In this document: positions 29,572-40,830 of the stretch, piece after piece
How the letters are laid out: every line of letters starts with the position of its first letter
Numbering within the stretch: position 1 is the first letter of the stretch
Source of the DNA: an uncultured Chthonomonas sp.
Lineage (GTDB): Bacteria > Armatimonadota > Chthonomonadetes > Chthonomonadales > CAJBBX01
Assembly (NCBI GenBank): GCA_903885605.1
Contig: CAISJD010000028.1
Coordinates: forward strand, 1-64,000
Reading direction: 5' to 3'
DNA length: 64,000 nucleotides
Notes under the pieces: model-generated
Databases searched by the model: none
Told to the model about the DNA's origin: nothing
What the model saw: only the letters and a program-made list of their open reading frames with translations
Made by a program: the position numbers and the translations under genes

Positions 29572-30516
29572 TCAGGCGCTCGGCAACCCCATGTCGGCCA
29601 AGGTATGCGCGTCCAGCACCCGGTCGGCGAGAACGCCGAGCAGTTCAGGATCGGTGATGGCCTCCACGCGAGCCACCACGTCGGGACCTATCTGCCCGAA
29701 CCGGCGCTGCATCTGCCGCAGCAGGATCGCCTTCTCGCCTTCCGTACGGCCTTCGGTCTTGCCTTCCATGCGGCCTTCCATGCGGCCGGTTGCCAGCCCC
29801 TTCTTCATGCCGCGCTCTTCGTATGCGAGCATCATGTGCTTCACCTCACTCTCGGAGGACGGCTCGAGGAGCCGATCCAGTTCCGCAGTTTCGCCGTCGG
29901 TCAGCGGGATGTACTTGTCTACCACGTACAGGAGCAACCAGCGCCGCGCTTCGTCCAGGTCGGCTCGGGCCATGCGCTCGTAGGCGCGGAGCTTGCGGAT
30001 GACACGACTGGTGCTGTTCGACCCCATCAACGCGCTCAACGCCGGCGCCAGAACGCTCGGACTCTCCAGGTACTCCTCGGCCGGCAGGTCCGGGAGGCCT
30101 ATTGCATCATACACGAAGCGGAGGGTCTCGCGGCCCCATAGCCTCTCGATATGCCGCTCCGACGTGAGGCCGCCGGCGCCGGGAGCCAGGTAGACCACCA
30201 CGGGCAGCACCGGGACGCGACGGCGCAGGCGAAGCAGGCTGTAGTACTCCCACATCCGAGCGGGGACGGCGGCCGACCGGTCGGCCTGCACCTCGATGTG
30301 GATCAGCACGATCTCGGCGCCGCCGTCATGTGCCTGGACCTTCACCACCACGTCGGGTTGGCGTCGACTACCTTCCGGCAGATCGGTGAAGACCTCCTGG
30401 TCGAGATGCTCCACGGTGCCGAAGTCGAGCCGGGCTGCGACGTCGGCGAAGAAGAGCTCCATGAACTCACGGAAGAAGGTCCGGAGCACATCCTTCCATA
30501 GCTGATCATGCGACAT
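29572..30516 (-). CDS. Rpn-family PD-(D/E)XK nuclease
   Basis: A 314-residue Rpn-family protein (recombination-promoting nuclease, transposase_31-like). The N-terminal PD-(D/E)XK core shows FFREFMELFFADVAARLDF, then RRQPDVVVKV (Asp55) and IVLIHIEVQ (Glu75, Gln77), a complete D...ExQ active site. The C-terminal third is linked by an EGR/EGK-rich segment and ends in DPELLGVLADRVLDAHTLADMG. An in-frame internal start (ATG-ATG at 29835) has GAGGTG 6 nt upstream and would yield an 87-residue C-terminal protein, as described for RpnS from E. coli rpn genes. In that system RpnL is a toxic nuclease used in phage defence. The 3' end is tandemly duplicated downstream. Confidence 0.85.
   Translation of the reverse strand: MSHDQLWKDVLRTFFREFMELFFADVAARLDFGTVEHLDQEVFTDLPEGSRRQPDVVVKVQAHDGGAEIVLIHIEVQADRSAAVPARMWEYYSLLRLRRRVPVLPVVVYLAPGAGGLTSERHIERLWGRETLRFVYDAIGLPDLPAEEYLESPSVLAPALSALMGSNSTSRVIRKLRAYERMARADLDEARRWLLLYVVDKYIPLTDGETAELDRLLEPSSESEVKHMMLAYEERGMKKGLATGRMEGRMEGKTEGRTEGEKAILLRQMQRRFGQIGPDVVARVEAITDPELLGVLADRVLDAHTLADMGLPSA
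29835..29847 (-). promoter_or_regulatory. Internal Shine-Dalgarno and start of an RpnS-like C-terminal product
   Basis: On the minus strand GAGGTG (29842-29847) is followed by six nt and then ATG-ATG (29835) in the frame of the Rpn-like gene, codons 228-229. The same site and spacing are kept in the downstream duplicate (29526-29531). This is an unusually good internal ribosome-binding site and predicts a separate 87-residue C-terminal protein. Confidence 0.6.
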
Positions 30517-33178: not shown

Positions 33179-34651
33179 TCAGCTGCCGGCGTCACTTGCC
33201 TGCACGCGCACCAGGATGTCGTGTCGGAACTCCGGGAGGGCCACGGTAGTGGCGCTACCTCCCGTGATGGTGATGTCCGGCGACCACTGGCCCGCCTCGG
33301 GTGACATGCAGGAGACGCTGTGCTGCCCCTCGGGCAGGCTTAGCGTCAGGGCGCCACGGATCGGTTCGCCGGCGCCGGGCACTTCCAGTTCCCTCTCGTC
33401 GGCCAGATAGACCGAGACGTCGCTACCGGCCACGCCGAAGGCCGCCTCCACGGTGTGCTCAGGGGCCGCGGTGACCACGCCCGGCAGGGGGTGAGCTGCC
33501 GCCAGATCGAGGCTGTGGATGAACCGAGACAGATGCCGGAACCAGGTCCGGATGCAGCGCTGCGACTCCTCGGTGCCGGTCTCGCAGTAGTTGATGATCG
33601 AGAAGTCGATATAGTCGTAGTGCGCGCCGCACATGAGCGCCATCCACGCCCGCTTGCGGTGGATGGTCCAGCCGTCGGTGTCCTTGTACTGGCTGGCAAC
33701 GTTGTCCTCGTCCAGGTTCAGGGGCTTGCTCTCCCTTGCCGCCGCCAGGCAGTAGTCGCGGACCGCCCGGAGCTTGAGCTGCTTGGACATGAACTGCCCC
33801 ATGTCGTACTCCACGCCGTCCAGCGCGGTGCCCGGCAACGGATGGATGTTCACGATATCGATCGGGAAGTCCCGGAACGAGAGCGTGGACATCTGCACGA
33901 AGGGGTGCCACTGGAACGCCTCCTGTCCGGCAATGAGGTGCTGGTTGGGGAGCGACGCCTCGGTCTGCCGGATTTCGGCGGCGATGGCGCGTTGCCACTC
34001 GTTCACCTCGTCGATGCCCGGGTTCCCCTCGCCGGGATGGCGCCCGCCGGGCTCGTTGCAGATCTCGAAGAAGAGGTTGTCGTAGGCGTTCACTTCGCGG
34101 ACAATCCGCCGCACATGCTCCAGCTGCCTTGCGACCAGCTCCGGATGCTGCAGCGTCATGTAGGTGGGCCACGAGATGGGTTTCAGACCATTCACGTTGT
34201 TGGCGCTGTTGAGCGGGTTCAGCGCCCAGATCCGGTCCTCGTAGGTGTTGCTGAGCAGCACCAGCTCCACGATGATCCCCAGTTCGGAGGCCCTGCCCAT
34301 CAAGCCGTGCAGCCGCTGGAAGAACTCGGGATTGGGCCTGTCCAGGTCGAACTTCGGTTCGCCGTCTTGCGCCCGGCCCGGTCCGGTACGCTCAAACGGC
34401 GCGATGTAGTCCGGCGACTCGGGCTTGCAGGTCGAGTAGGGGTTGCAGTGGCTCTGCAACTCGCGGAACAGCACGAAGAGCCGGGTCAGGGTCATGCCCT
34501 TGGCGGCAGCGTCCGCCAGGTAGCGCTCATACCGGAACGGCCGGTTCATCACGGCGCCGTAGTGCTCGGTGGCTGTGAGGAGGACGAGGGGCTTTCCGCG
34601 GAACTCGAACAGCCGTGGGTTCTCGGGATGGATGCGGATAGGCTCTGGCAT
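33179..34651 (-). CDS. GH-A clan glycosidase-like protein (GH5/GH140 type)
   Basis: A 490-residue protein with a (beta/alpha)8 barrel of the GH5/GH140-like type and a C-terminal beta-sandwich. No signal peptide is visible from this start. It begins NPRLFEFRGKPLVLLTATEHYGA, then GMTLTRLFVLFRE. The probable acid/base is Glu in FFEICNEPGG, and a nucleophile candidate is Glu in LNLDEDN. Residues about 400-490 (GAGEPIRGALTLSLPEGQ) resemble the putative collagen-binding beta domain that follows such barrels. Substrate not known. AGGAGA lies 8 nt before ATG 34651. It stands apart from its neighbours. Confidence 0.7.
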   Translation of the reverse strand: MPEPIRIHPENPRLFEFRGKPLVLLTATEHYGAVMNRPFRYERYLADAAAKGMTLTRLFVLFRELQSHCNPYSTCKPESPDYIAPFERTGPGRAQDGEPKFDLDRPNPEFFQRLHGLMGRASELGIIVELVLLSNTYEDRIWALNPLNSANNVNGLKPISWPTYMTLQHPELVARQLEHVRRIVREVNAYDNLFFEICNEPGGRHPGEGNPGIDEVNEWQRAIAAEIRQTEASLPNQHLIAGQEAFQWHPFVQMSTLSFRDFPIDIVNIHPLPGTALDGVEYDMGQFMSKQLKLRAVRDYCLAAARESKPLNLDEDNVASQYKDTDGWTIHRKRAWMALMCGAHYDYIDFSIINYCETGTEESQRCIRTWFRHLSRFIHSLDLAAAHPLPGVVTAAPEHTVEAAFGVAGSDVSVYLADERELEVPGAGEPIRGALTLSLPEGQHSVSCMSPEAGQWSPDITITGGSATTVALPEFRHDILVRVQASDAGS

Positions 34652-34958
34652 GGCGCGATCTCCTGACCGGCGACAATGTGCCAGTCAGTGTACGCCATGC
34701 CCGGCCGGTCGCCAATGGTGCGAGTTCAGAAGCTACGTGGCCGGGTTGCGCGCTCAACGCCGGCGCCAGAACGCTCGGACGCTCGAGGTACTCCTCGGCC
34801 GGCAGGTCAGCGAGGCCTACTGCATCATACACGAACCGGAGGGTCTCGCGTCCCCATAGCCCCTCAGTGTGCCGCTCCGCAATGAGGCCGCCGGCGCCGG
34901 GAGCGAGGTTGGCGTACATTCCATATCGAATGCCGACACTGCGGCATAGGCCATCGAC
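34652..34958. other. 307-bp intergenic region with an Rpn remnant
   Basis: The gap between the GH-A gene and the LamG-containing gene contains a 161-bp piece of an Rpn-type gene (34749-34909) and otherwise nothing I can name. Confidence 0.7.
34749..34909 (-). pseudogene. Internal fragment of an Rpn-family gene
   Basis: About 161 bp closely match 30031-30191 inside the full-length Rpn-like gene. The conserved segment reads APGAGGL, then LWGRETLRFVYDA and PAEEYLE, corresponding to residues 109-163 of the intact protein. Start, active site and C-terminal domain are missing, so this is a relic. It shows that another Rpn gene once lay here or that a piece was copied 4.7 kb away. Confidence 0.75.
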
Positions 34959-37528: not shown

Positions 37529-38755
37529 TCACTCCAACGGCAGCAGCAGGTCGGCGGCAGTTGGGGGCGCCGGTGCGTCGCCTGCCAGCGACATGAGTGC
37601 GGCCTCCGTGGTGGGCTCGGCCTCCAGAGCCTCAGCCAGGGCTGCGTGACGGTCAGTGAGCGGCAGGCTGCCGAGGGTGCGCAGCGCTGCCTCGGCGGCG
37701 TCGTGGAGGCCGGCGGGACAGAGGCGGGTGGCTGATGAGAAGCATCGGATCGGGTCAATGGCCGGGTAGAGGCGCCGCCCGGCCAGTTCGCCGCTCAGGG
37801 GCACGCGCCATGTCAGGCCGCCCAGGGCATGTTCCACCAGGCGGAGGTAGGGGTGCGACTCGCGCTCCTCTTCCTCTTCGTCGTCCACCGCGATGTGCCA
37901 GGCCGAAGCCACCAGCGTTAGCGACCCGCCCAGCCCGCCACCGAATAGCCCCTCGCCGCCGTACCAGCCCGGGGCCTGCAGCCACTCCGTCATGCGGAGC
38001 CGTGCGGCGGACTGGTCGGCCTCGGCCTGTGCATCGGCGTTCTCAGCCTCAAGCATGGCTGCCCAGCAGGCAGTCAGCGAATCGATCAGTAGGAGCACAT
38101 GGCGGCCCTGCTCGGTCCGGCGCTGGGCGGCGGAGAGGACGACCTCGGCGGCCAACGCCTCGTGCTCGGCCGGAACGCCCTCCTCGCGCGACGGGGTCGT
38201 CACCACCTCCACGCCGGGGAAGCGCCGCCGCCAGTGCGTCGCCTCCTCGCTCCGGGCGCGGCAGAGCAACGCGATCACCTCAACCTCGCCGGAGGCGGTT
38301 GCGCCCTGGGCCACGGCCTGCAGGCTCCGGGTGAGGCCCGAGCCGTGGGGCCCGTAGACCAGCCCTGCGGCGCCGACGGCCAGGGGCGCACAGCACTCAA
38401 GCATCTGCCCGGTGAGGCCGGCGCGATCCACGGCGAGGGGGATCAGCCGCTCGATCGGCGAGCGGTCATAGGTCGAGCGCTTGCGCGGGGTGGGGCGGTC
38501 GGCGGCTTCGTCGGGGTCCAGACCATTGATGGCGGTGACCTGCGCCAGGGCGCCGTCCTCAACCAGGCCGGTGATGATGTCGCCCGAGTCGATCCGTCGC
38601 TCGGCCAGTACGCGATCCAGCACGGGAGTGCGGTCGAAGCCCCATCGGGCGCCGAACCGCAAGACGGCCACGGCTCCGTCGGCCGGGCGATGGGCGATGC
38701 CGTGGATGGTCTCGCCCGGTTCGAGCCGCATGAGCGGCGTGCCGGTATGCGGCAT
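37529..38755 (-). CDS. Rho-like protein with degenerate Walker A (possible pseudo-ATPase)
   Basis: A 408-residue homologue of transcription termination factor Rho. Residues 10-90 match Rho's RNA-binding cold-shock domain: RIDSGDIITGLV then AQVTAINGLDPDEA aligns with the Rho pattern LRTGDTI...VNGxDPEEA, and RSTYDRSPIERL corresponds to the LTPLYPxERL linker. The ATPase core keeps GLVYGPHGSGLTRSLQAVAQ (about 131-150), but the Walker A lysine is replaced by Leu141; Walker B is intact (VLLLIDSLT, 220-228). The acidic motif near Rho's catalytic Glu has become CRARSEEATH. The end PAIDPIRCFSSATR resembles Rho's arginine-finger segment. The start is ATG 38755 with GGAGGAG upstream. It is divergent from the LacI-type gene. 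Confidence 0.8.
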   Translation of the reverse strand: MPHTGTPLMRLEPGETIHGIAHRPADGAVAVLRFGARWGFDRTPVLDRVLAERRIDSGDIITGLVEDGALAQVTAINGLDPDEAADRPTPRKRSTYDRSPIERLIPLAVDRAGLTGQMLECCAPLAVGAAGLVYGPHGSGLTRSLQAVAQGATASGEVEVIALLCRARSEEATHWRRRFPGVEVVTTPSREEGVPAEHEALAAEVVLSAAQRRTEQGRHVLLLIDSLTACWAAMLEAENADAQAEADQSAARLRMTEWLQAPGWYGGEGLFGGGLGGSLTLVASAWHIAVDDEEEEERESHPYLRLVEHALGGLTWRVPLSGELAGRRLYPAIDPIRCFSSATRLCPAGLHDAAEAALRTLGSLPLTDRHAALAEALEAEPTTEAALMSLAGDAPAPPTAADLLLPLE

Positions 38756-38848
38756 CGCACTCCTCCCAGTGCCGGGCCCTGACGGCGCCGGCGCGGTTGA
38801 GTATGGCACGGCGTCCCGCAAACGGTCGAAAAAAGACGCCCGCGTCCC

Positions 38849-38907
38849 TTGACAACGGACCGCCCTGCCGTTATCCTAGAGTAAGCGGTTGCTAGTACGC
38901 GGTTACT
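38849..38907 (+). promoter_or_regulatory. Sigma70-like promoter and direct repeats before the LacI-type gene
   Basis: TTGACA (38849-38854) and TATCCT (38872-38877) are separated by exactly 17 nt. Just downstream are two direct repeats, TAAGCGGTTGCT (38882-38893) and TACGCGGTTACT (38896-38907), spaced 14 bp apart and placed over the likely start of transcription. They contain the AGCGGTT/CGGTTA type of half-sites that LacI-family proteins often bind, so autoregulation is possible. The regulator starts at 38958. Confidence 0.65.
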
Positions 38908-38957: not shown

Positions 38958-39932
38958 ATGACGACCATCAAGGACATAGCGATAGAGCTGTCGTTGTCCA
39001 CGGCCACCGTGTCCCGGGCACTGCACGATTCAGACAGCCCCTACGTCTCCGCGGGGACGAGATCGCGAGTACTTGAGACCGCCCGCGTCATGGGCTACAC
39101 GCCCAACGCACGCGGCCGGGCCCTGGCCACAGGGCGCACGCACCTGGTGAGCCTCTGGATCAATAACCCCAACACCGCCTACTACGCCATGGTTGCCCGC
39201 GACCTCTGCGACAAGTCAGAGCAGCGCGGCTTCCACCCCGTTGTCCGGGCTGCCAGCACGCAGAGCTCGCATCCGCTTGCATGGCAGGCGCAAGACGGCA
39301 TGGCCGACGGGGTCATAGCGGTGGATGTGGGTGAGCCGCTGGGCGCCCTCGTGCCCCAGGGGCGCGCCCCGTTCCGACCTATCGTAGCACTCGGAGCCCT
39401 ATGCCTTACCACCCTGGATCACGTGCGCGTGGACCTCTACATCGGCGCCCTTGAGGCAATGCGCCACCTGGCCGAGACCCGCGCCGGGCGTATCGTTGGC
39501 TTGATGTACCGCGAGACCGATCCGCGGACCCGCGCCTACCTAGCCGTCATGCGGGAGGCTGGACGGGAGCCGGAGATCGTCATGATCCCCGACGAATCCC
39601 GGCCCACCAACCGCGCCCTGGCAGCCGCCTATGTCGCCGAACATGGCTGCCCCGACGCCTTCTTCTGCCAGAACGATGACGTGGCCATTGCCGTCTACCG
39701 CGGCTTGCTGGATGCGGGCGTCCGCATTCCGGACGATGTGGCCATCGTCGGTTGCGACGGCATTGAAGATGGCGAGTACCTGGACCGGCCGCTCTCAACC
39801 ATCACCCATCCAGTGGATGAGATGTGCGAGACGGCCTGGCAGTTCCTGCTCTTACGCATGTCACAGCCTGAGGCCCCGCGCCAGGAGGCTGTACTGCCTT
39901 CGAAATTCGTGATACGAGCGTCATCTGCATGA
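38958..39932 (+). CDS. LacI-family transcriptional regulator
   Basis: A 324-residue LacI/GalR-type regulator. Residues 1-55 form the helix-turn-helix and hinge helix: TIKDIAIELSLSTATVSRAL, then GYTPNARGRALATGRT. The remainder is the periplasmic-binding-protein-like sensor domain (for example DAFFCQNDDVAIAVYRGLLDAG and IVGCDGIEDGEYLDRPLST), so it probably senses a sugar. The start at ATG 38958 puts the HTH at the very N-terminus; a longer frame to 38889 is not needed. It lies directly upstream of the pseudopilin and the glycan operon on the same strand and is the best candidate for their control. Confidence 0.93.
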   Translation: MTTIKDIAIELSLSTATVSRALHDSDSPYVSAGTRSRVLETARVMGYTPNARGRALATGRTHLVSLWINNPNTAYYAMVARDLCDKSEQRGFHPVVRAASTQSSHPLAWQAQDGMADGVIAVDVGEPLGALVPQGRAPFRPIVALGALCLTTLDHVRVDLYIGALEAMRHLAETRAGRIVGLMYRETDPRTRAYLAVMREAGREPEIVMIPDESRPTNRALAAAYVAEHGCPDAFFCQNDDVAIAVYRGLLDAGVRIPDDVAIVGCDGIEDGEYLDRPLSTITHPVDEMCETAWQFLLLRMSQPEAPRQEAVLPSKFVIRASSA

Positions 39933-40047
39933 TGCGCTACCGAAGGGGGTGGTAGTCGATCCATGTCGGCCTAACAACTCTGAACCGTGACGGTCTGCCC
40001 TGAAGGCATTCCCACAAGGGGCCATGGGCCCCGGAGGTATGAGCCAA
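39933..40047 (+). promoter_or_regulatory. Leader region of the pseudopilin with a hairpin next to its ribosome-binding site
   Basis: GGGGCC (40018-40023) pairs with GGCCCC (40027-40032) over a 3-nt loop. The hairpin ends one base before the GGAGGT site (40033-40038) that serves ATG 40048, so folding could affect translation. A small perfect palindrome ACCGT-G-ACGGT (39984-39994) might be an operator. No promoter elements are evident. Confidence 0.4.
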
Positions 40048-40830
40048 ATGCAACGTCGAGGTTTCACGCTCATCGAACTGCTGGTGGTGATTGCAATTAT
40101 CGCCATCCTTGCAGCCATCCTGTTCCCGGTCTTCGCACAGGCCCGAGAGCAGGCCCGAAAGGCCAGTTGCCTTAGCAGCCAGAAGCAGAACGGTCTGGCT
40201 CTGATGATGTACGCGCAGGACTATGACGAGGCGTACTCGCAGATCGGCGACTGGAACCAGCGCATCCCGCCGTACCAGCTGGGCGTTCGCAACTGGACCG
40301 CTCTGATCCAGCCCTACGTCAAGAGCTACGAACTGGTCGAGTTCGGTTGCCCCAGCGCCAACTACAAGCGGTCGCCCTGGGGTGAGAGCAACGACCCGAA
40401 CGACGGCAACAAGCCGGCCAACCCGGCCCGCGGCCCCGAGTACTCGGCCAACCACATGGTGCTCGGGCTGAACGGACCGGCGTGGGGCTCGCTCGTGAAC
40501 GTCGGCATGGCTGACATCCAGGAGCCGGCCCAGACCATCGCCATCTCTGAGTGTGGCACGGTCGATACCTACACGCGCTTCGGCACCTACTGGACGCCTT
40601 ACTGGCACACCTACTACTACTTCGACATGGAGCCCTTCTTTGGAGCGGCGACATGGTGGAGGCCGCCGGTGGCGCACAACAGCTCCAAGAACGACGGTGG
40701 CATGAACTGCGTGTTCGCCGACGGCCACGCCAAGAACATGCGCCTCTCGAGCTTCATCAACATCAGTGGCTCGACCTACTCCGTCAAGACCTACTACTGG
40801 GAGCAGAACAAGGCCGGCCTGTCGCCCTAG
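40048..40830 (+). CDS. DUF1559-type pseudopilin with prepilin leader
   Basis: A 260-residue exported pseudopilin-like protein. The type IV prepilin leader is [18 protein letters not shown] with Gly(-1), Phe(+1) and Glu(+5), followed by a hydrophobic helix and [16 protein letters not shown], a typical Armatimonadota ending of this helix. The C-terminal body contains [12 protein letters not shown], the conserved H-x-G end of DUF1559-like proteins. Such proteins need a PilD-type peptidase and an export machine encoded elsewhere. I start at ATG 40048, with GGAGGT 9 nt upstream; upstream ATGs (40024, 40039) overlap the hairpin or the site itself. Confidence 0.92.

What the first reader, a model, noticed from the sequence alone, without database searches (positions are those of the whole stretch)
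37529..38755. Rho homologue with the Walker A lysine replaced by leucine
The protein aligns over the RNA-binding cold-shock domain and ATPase core of Rho, yet its P-loop reads GPHGSGLT instead of GPPKAGKT, and the region near the catalytic Glu is changed to CRARSEEATH. Walker B and the arginine-finger segment remain. An intact 408-residue frame without these residues suggests a protein kept for another job, perhaps an RNA-binding or Rho-inhibiting hexamer member. It is divergent from a LacI regulator at a glycan operon.
Basis: partly seen in the sequence, partly recalled or inferred. Interest (0 to 1): 0.65.

Follow-up and report, generated by a model that had tools for sequence, protein, structure and literature searches.

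The report
Rho-derived protein with dead ATPase site
Some bacteria of one order keep, beside their normal Rho transcription terminator, a second Rho-like protein whose ATP-burning and RNA-gripping residues are replaced in every relative we could read, so it was probably kept for a different, still unknown job.

Summary
The 408-residue frame at 37529-38755 (minus) is a Rho homologue with GPHGSGLT in place of Walker A and CRARSEE in place of IDERPEE. Canonical Rho, motifs intact, lies elsewhere in the genome. Orthologues occur in 8 of 291 Armatimonadota genomes, plus one contig-edge fragment, all in one order. None of 7 readable P-loops has the lysine (G-[PGQ]-H-G-x-G-[LV]-[TS]); 0 of 8 keep the catalytic Glu; 1 of 8 keeps the aligned arginine finger. 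It is neither sequencing error nor pseudogene: dN/dS 0.13-0.16, lower in the core. Rho's RNA machinery is gone too: no Rho_RNA_bind match, RNA-site aromatics lost, pore loops rebuilt into an acidic segment of constant length. Walker B Asp, Arg valve and the adenine-stacking aromatic remain. Best reading: a Rho-derived pseudo-ATPase, not an RNA motor, neofunctionalised as its own oligomer, perhaps still binding nucleotide. RNA binding or Rho inhibition finds no support: Rho of carriers shows no matching interface change. Neighbours do not reveal the function; the mechanism is inferred.

The parts
37529..38755 (-). pseudo-Rho CDS, 408 aa, ATG start
   Evidence: conserved SD; orthologues
38525..38713 (-). 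N-terminal OB-like domain (about residues 15-77), lacking the Rho RNA-binding signature
   Evidence: five strands between 16 and 76 in the model; no PF07497 match
38330..38353 (-). altered Walker A, GPHGSGLT (residues 135-142)
38243..38263 (-). CRARSEE (165-171) replacing Rho IDERPEE; catalytic Glu to Ala, Arg valve kept
38072..38086 (-). Walker B IDSLT (224-228), kept
37766..38071 (-). rebuilt Q-loop/R-loop (pore) segment, residues 229-330: acidic, 15 residues longer than in Rho
37733..37747 (-). region of the Rho arginine finger (RCFSS, residues 337-341); Arg366 not kept at a fixed position
38760..38767 (-). Shine-Dalgarno-like GGGAGGAG of pseudo-Rho
   Evidence: identical in 3 of 3 congeners
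38849..38877 (+). TTGACA-17-TATCCT promoter-like site of the divergent LacI gene
   Evidence: sequence inspection
38958..39932 (+). divergent LacI-family regulator (likely ATG start)
   Evidence: LacI, Peripla_BP_3

Best explanation
The gene encodes a Rho-derived pseudo-ATPase. SHOWN: it is a paralogue of Rho (the genome has a separate intact rho); it forms one clade with orthologues from one order of Armatimonadota; the clade lacks the Walker A lysine, the gamma-phosphate lysine (K181 to G), the catalytic Glu and, with one possible exception, the arginine finger; it lacks the RNA-binding signature and has rebuilt pore loops; it is under purifying selection. INFERRED: it does not hydrolyse ATP in Rho's way and does not translocate RNA. 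Because Walker B Asp, the Mg-side Thr/Ser, the Arg valve and the adenine-stacking Phe/Tyr persist, it may still bind a nucleotide. MOST LIKELY MECHANISM (inferred): it assembles with itself into a Rho-like oligomer whose acidic, Trp-containing central segment is a binding surface for something other than RNA, with any bound nucleotide structural or regulatory rather than fuel.
For: Rho homology: hhalign 6.3e-35, 99.9%; 11 Rho sequences rank above all others, best non-Rho 1.5e-10. Clade 100/100, 8 of 8 members on one side of a branch. Residue table: K184 0 of 7, K181 0 of 7, E211 0 of 8, R366 1 of 8, R269 0 of 8; kept: G183 7 of 7, T185 as T/S 7 of 7, R212, D265, R353 8 of 8, F355 as F/Y 8 of 8; 12 of 12 canonical rows have K184, E211, R366. 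R/K326 is E in 8 of 8. PF07497 matched in 0 of 8 members (window and five members at E<=1, two members at E<=1e-3; one of the eight lacks the N-terminus), above cut-off in 4 of 5 Rho controls. Pore segment is 102 aa in 8 of 8 with net charge -7 to -10, versus 87 aa and -1 to +3 in 10 of 10 measurable canonical rows. 15 of 24 new invariant positions fall in that quarter of the protein. dN/dS 0.13-0.16 against 0.02-0.03 for rho. No C-terminal-domain change in partner Rho.
Against: No biochemistry. Self-assembly was not modelled. Only six lineages are independent, since three members are congeners at about 90% identity. Alignment is uncertain in the pore loops and at the arginine finger. The usable model (pLDDT 65.7) was built on an alignment containing Rho, so its Rho fold is partly imposed, and the pore segment is mostly below pLDDT 50. 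Kept Walker B, Arg valve and aromatic would also suit a weak or altered ATPase.
Confidence: 0.55

Rival explanations
1. A dominant-negative or tuning subunit: it enters Rho hexamers or docks on Rho and poisons or slows the motor.
For: Same fold family; carriers all have intact canonical rho (8 of 8); both faces of the ATP site are altered, so a mixed interface would be dead.
Against: Rho of carriers versus non-carriers shows 0 diagnostic C-terminal-domain positions in either family; the only interior one is in the N-terminal half, in one family (8 carriers and 18 non-carriers of those two families). Pseudo-Rho has diverged to 37-48% identity between genomes whose Rho are 75-85% identical, not expected of a co-assembling subunit.
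Confidence: 0.15
2. A working NTPase with a changed catalytic apparatus: H137 or another residue replaces the lysine.
For: H137, G138 and G140 are invariant in the 7 readable P-loops; D265, R212, T/S185 and F/Y355 are kept.
Against: Catalytic Glu is A, C or R in 8 of 8 and the arginine finger is not fixed; no Lys or Arg is conserved in or next to the P-loop.
Confidence: 0.13
3. An RNA-binding non-motor protein, e.g. an antiterminator or RNA chaperone using the OB domain.
For: OB-like domain predicted; R66 equivalent is R in 5 of 7; Rho ancestry.
Against: Aromatics of the primary site lost, PF07497 not matched, acidic pore, whole-protein net charge -13 to -24.
Confidence: 0.12
4. Pseudogene or sequencing error.
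For: Patchy distribution and faster evolution than rho.
Against: Eight genomes share the altered motifs in open frames; dN/dS 0.13-0.16; conserved start and SD.
Confidence: 0.02

Closest known systems
Transcription termination factor Rho (TIGR00767, PF07497 + PF00006)
   Same: Overall fold and order of elements, linker (NGLDPxxAxxR), Walker B, Arg valve, R353, F/Y355
   Different: No catalytic Lys/Glu, arginine finger not fixed, no RNA-binding signature, no basic pore residue, 15-residue longer acidic pore segment
Short Rho paralogue 'Rho2' (NF041509); a short Rho-like example here is L045 in genome G035 (not itself scanned against NF041509)
   Same: Second Rho-like gene in the genome, short N-terminus; NF041509 is the best NCBIfam hit of the window protein
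   Different: L045 keeps SPPRAGKT, LDERPEEVT and SGTR and does not join the clade; the window protein scores 68.9 bits against a cut-off of 628
Non-catalytic subunits of rotary ATPases (V/A-ATPase B; F1 alpha)
   Same: A precedent, recalled, for RecA-like ring subunits that lost catalysis but kept the ring
   Different: Sequence and fold are much closer to Rho: Z 27.6 versus about 16 for rotary and type III ATPases; no partner subunit identified

Membership tests
Transcription termination factor Rho | Score over the TIGR00767 curated cut-off (509 bits) | tested here: not met
   64.7 bits; own canonical rho scores 622.5
Transcription termination factor Rho | Walker A lysine (K184) | tested here: not met
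   0 of 7 readable members, 12 of 12 canonical rows have it
Transcription termination factor Rho | Catalytic Glu (E211) | tested here: not met
   0 of 8
Transcription termination factor Rho | Walker B Asp and Arg valve (D265, R212) | tested here: met
   8 of 8
Transcription termination factor Rho | Arginine finger R366 | tested here: inconclusive
   R in 1 of 8 by A5; A6 aligns R344 of the window protein there
Transcription termination factor Rho | Rho_RNA_bind domain PF07497 | tested here: not met
   reported for 0 of 8 members; over cut-off in 4 of 5 controls
Transcription termination factor Rho | Basic Q-/R-loop pore residues | tested here: not met
   R/K326 is E in 8 of 8, in an indel-rich region; net charge -7 to -10
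Transcription termination factor Rho | Hexamer, RNA-dependent ATPase, termination | not testable with these tools
   needs purified protein
Rho fold superfamily (homology only) | Significant profile and fold similarity to Rho | tested here: met
   (the model's alignment contained Rho)
Rho2 short paralogue NF041509 | Score over curated cut-off (628 bits) | tested here: not met
   68.9 bits
Rotary/T3SS ATPase (FliI, F1, V1) | Closer to these than to Rho | tested here: not met
   best 5.7e-6 versus 4.6e-19; profile search 1.5e-10 versus 7.8e-44

The most novel reading that the evidence does not exclude
A Rho ring exapted out of transcription termination: a nucleotide-bound but non-hydrolysing oligomer whose rebuilt acidic central channel holds a protein, peptide or cationic ligand, i.e. 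a Rho-fold sensor or scaffold confined to one bacterial order.
Probability: 0.3. Interest if true: 0.75.

Novelty: new variant of a known kind. Interest (0 to 1): 0.5.

Why it matters
Rho is treated as a conserved motor with one job. A clade in which the ATP site, primary RNA site and pore were all rewritten while the fold was kept shows that the Rho ring can be recycled, gives a natural separation-of-function set for testing what ring assembly needs, and warns that annotation pipelines may label such proteins 'Rho' or 'ATPase'. No description was found in the eight paper searches made (search listings only), which cover only open PMC text.

Tried and rejected
Pseudogene/sequencing error: rejected by orthologues and dN/dS. 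Function from neighbours: no gene is shared by carriers outside the genus or the close pair G022/G025; chemotaxis genes (G017), a DUF1549/DUF1501/GDSL run (G005), a PII gene and a beta-eliminating lyase (G007), ThuA and a malic-enzyme-like gene (G022/G025; the latter named from its sequence, not by a call), a DprA-like gene (G003, likewise) each adjoin it once or in one pair. Defence or phage origin: no PADLOC match, only a weak PHROG of unknown function at 0.0034, no relative in viral contigs, only partial Rho-type hits in plasmids and phages. Co-evolution with Rho: negative. First structure model, three near-identical rows, was poor (pLDDT 41.7) and not used. One contig of the genome scan (L037) proved to be a FliI-type ATPase (by inspection). 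Search outside the phylum was thin: about 106 further genomes (397 minus the 291) and 30 of one other phylum (no positive control) gave no member, so restriction to Armatimonadota is provisional. In one search two canonical rows (L087, L045) were dropped because the pattern matched a different stretch. Residue labels F62, F64, R66, Y80, Y110, K283, R269 and R353 are recalled; F355, M186, K181, T185, R212, R366, E211, D265 come from a passage of PMC11718236, and K184, K326 and the Q-/R-loop role from passages of PMC8828861.

Full report
CHECK OF THE OBSERVATION. The frame is real and uninterrupted: 408 residues from ATG at 38755 to the stop at 37529, minus strand. GPHGSGLT occupies residues 135-142 and CRARSEE 165-171. 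A GGGAGGAG site lies just upstream of the ATG, identical in 3 of 3 congeneric genomes. Best family matches are Rho models (NCBIfam 4.6e-19 and 6.8e-18), with rotary ATPase models far behind (5.7e-6). Pfam sees only the general ATP-synt_ab domain above its cut-off. In the PDB the best sequence match is Thermus Rho (4.3e-17).

A CANONICAL RHO EXISTS. The same genome (5.6 Mb, 100% complete by the tool's estimate) carries rho on another contig, 622.5 bits against a cut-off of 509.45, with APPKAGKT, LIDERPEEVT, DSLT and SGTR. All 8 genomes with a clear orthologue have such a rho.

ORTHOLOGUES. A profile of the family searched over 291 Armatimonadota genomes gave 8 members at 401 bits or more; the next match, a canonical Rho, scores 156 bits. 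A ninth, G003, has a C-terminal fragment at a contig edge (46% identity over residues 291-362; ORF). All nine lie in one order: two families, with 5 plus the fragment among 12 genomes of one, 3 of 17 of the other, and 0 of 2 of a third. Contig titles of two congeners name Armatimonadetes and Chthonomonas sp.. On a tree of 29 rows the 8 form one side of a branch with 100/100 support; branches are long, so placement relative to Rho is unsure, and the internal order is weakly supported.

RESIDUES (E. coli numbering from the rho fetched). Of 7 members with a readable P-loop (G017's is cut by a contig end), 0 have K184 (L six times, V once) and 0 have K181 (all G); G183 is kept 7 of 7; T185 is T or S 7 of 7. 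A His replaces P180 in all 7. E211 is A, C or R in 8 of 8. R212 (arginine valve), D265 (Walker B) and R353 are kept 8 of 8; F355 is F or Y 8 of 8. R366 aligns with R in 1 of 8, but another alignment puts R344 of the window protein opposite it, so I call this inconclusive. Roles of these residues: passages of PMC11718236 and PMC8828861. In 12 of 12 canonical rows K184, E211, R212, D265 and R366 are present.

RNA SITES. The primary-site aromatics (labels recalled) are V/P/L, V/I and V/E/D/T in the 7 readable members; R66 is R in 5 of 7. PF07497 (Rho_RNA_bind) was not reported for any of the 8 members (two of them searched only to 1e-3, one lacking the N-terminus), while 4 of 5 Rho controls exceed its cut-off and the fifth, a short Rho-like protein, reaches 1.4e-4. 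In the pore, R/K326 becomes E in 8 of 8. The stretch from Walker B to PAID is exactly 102 residues with net charge -7 to -10 in 8 of 8, against 87 residues and -1 to +3 in the 10 canonical rows that could be measured. Of 60 positions invariant in the family, 24 are new relative to Rho, and 15 of these 24 lie in this quarter of the protein (binomial 1.1e-4 under uniform placement). The loss is thus accompanied by a new conserved pattern where Rho grips RNA.

SELECTION. Pairwise dN/dS among three congeners is 0.13-0.16 (core dN 0.016-0.031 against dS 0.17-0.41), higher than for rho in the same genomes (0.02-0.03) but far below 1. Between genera, pseudo-Rho identity is 37-48% where Rho identity is 75-85% (four genome pairs).

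STRUCTURE. A first model was poor. With Rho rows added the model reached pLDDT 65.7, pTM 0.71: an OB-like barrel (16-76) and a RecA-like core; residues 241-276 and 287-313 stay below 50. It matches Rho at Z 27.6 (320 residues, 3.5 A) against about 16 for rotary and type III ATPases (Foldseek). Since the input alignment held Rho, this confirms compatibility rather than independent identity; the sequence profiles do that (hhalign 6.3e-35 through the N-terminal domain).

CONTEXT. In the window the gene diverges from a LacI-family gene, with a GH123 and a GH20 enzyme beyond it and a LamG-domain and a cellulase-like protein downstream of pseudo-Rho. The LacI side is shared by 3 of 3 congeners; the downstream side by 2 of 3. 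Outside the genus the neighbours differ. Context therefore does not name the function.

PARTNERSHIP WITH RHO. If pseudo-Rho entered Rho hexamers, Rho of carriers might show matching changes. Comparing 3 carriers with 12 non-carriers of one family and 5 with 6 of the other, no diagnostic position lies in the C-terminal domain; the only hits are in the variable N-terminal extension and one A/G difference (its numbers are offset by 26 because the E. coli frame there begins upstream of the ATG). This is weak evidence against co-assembly.

CONCLUSION. A Rho-derived pseudo-ATPase clade, retained under selection, probably no longer an RNA motor. That much I hold at about 0.85. That it acts as its own oligomer with a new ligand in the rebuilt channel is inference; for the whole statement I give 0.55.

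Noticed in passing
window 38880-38907: AGTAAGCGGTTGCTAGTACGCGGTTACT, an imperfect inverted repeat right after the LacI promoter-like site, almost identical in 3 congeners; candidate LacI operator.
   Followed up: partly
window 34527-34919: ORF closely resembling part of the DUF4351 protein at 29572-30516 (shared stretch around GRETLRFVYDA): looks like a remnant second copy inside the glycan gene run.
   Followed up: no
L106 2468-3349; L107 2399-3364: Viral-collection contigs (132 kb and 28 kb) encode short Rho proteins with intact P-loop lysine but little or no N-terminal RNA-binding domain.
   Followed up: no
L087, L089, L090, L045: Genomes G031, G045, G050 and G035 carry a second Rho with intact catalytic motifs, so extra Rho copies occur elsewhere in the phylum.
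   Followed up: partly
window 40000-40830: DUF1559/pilin-like protein 98-99% identical across congeners while its neighbours are 90-94%.
   Followed up: no
L082, L083, L085: Canonical Rho of G025, G022 and G017 reads FPAISL[RK]SSTR near the arginine finger, one residue shorter than G015's FPAISIVKSGTR; no carrier-specific position came out of the wider comparison.
   Followed up: partly
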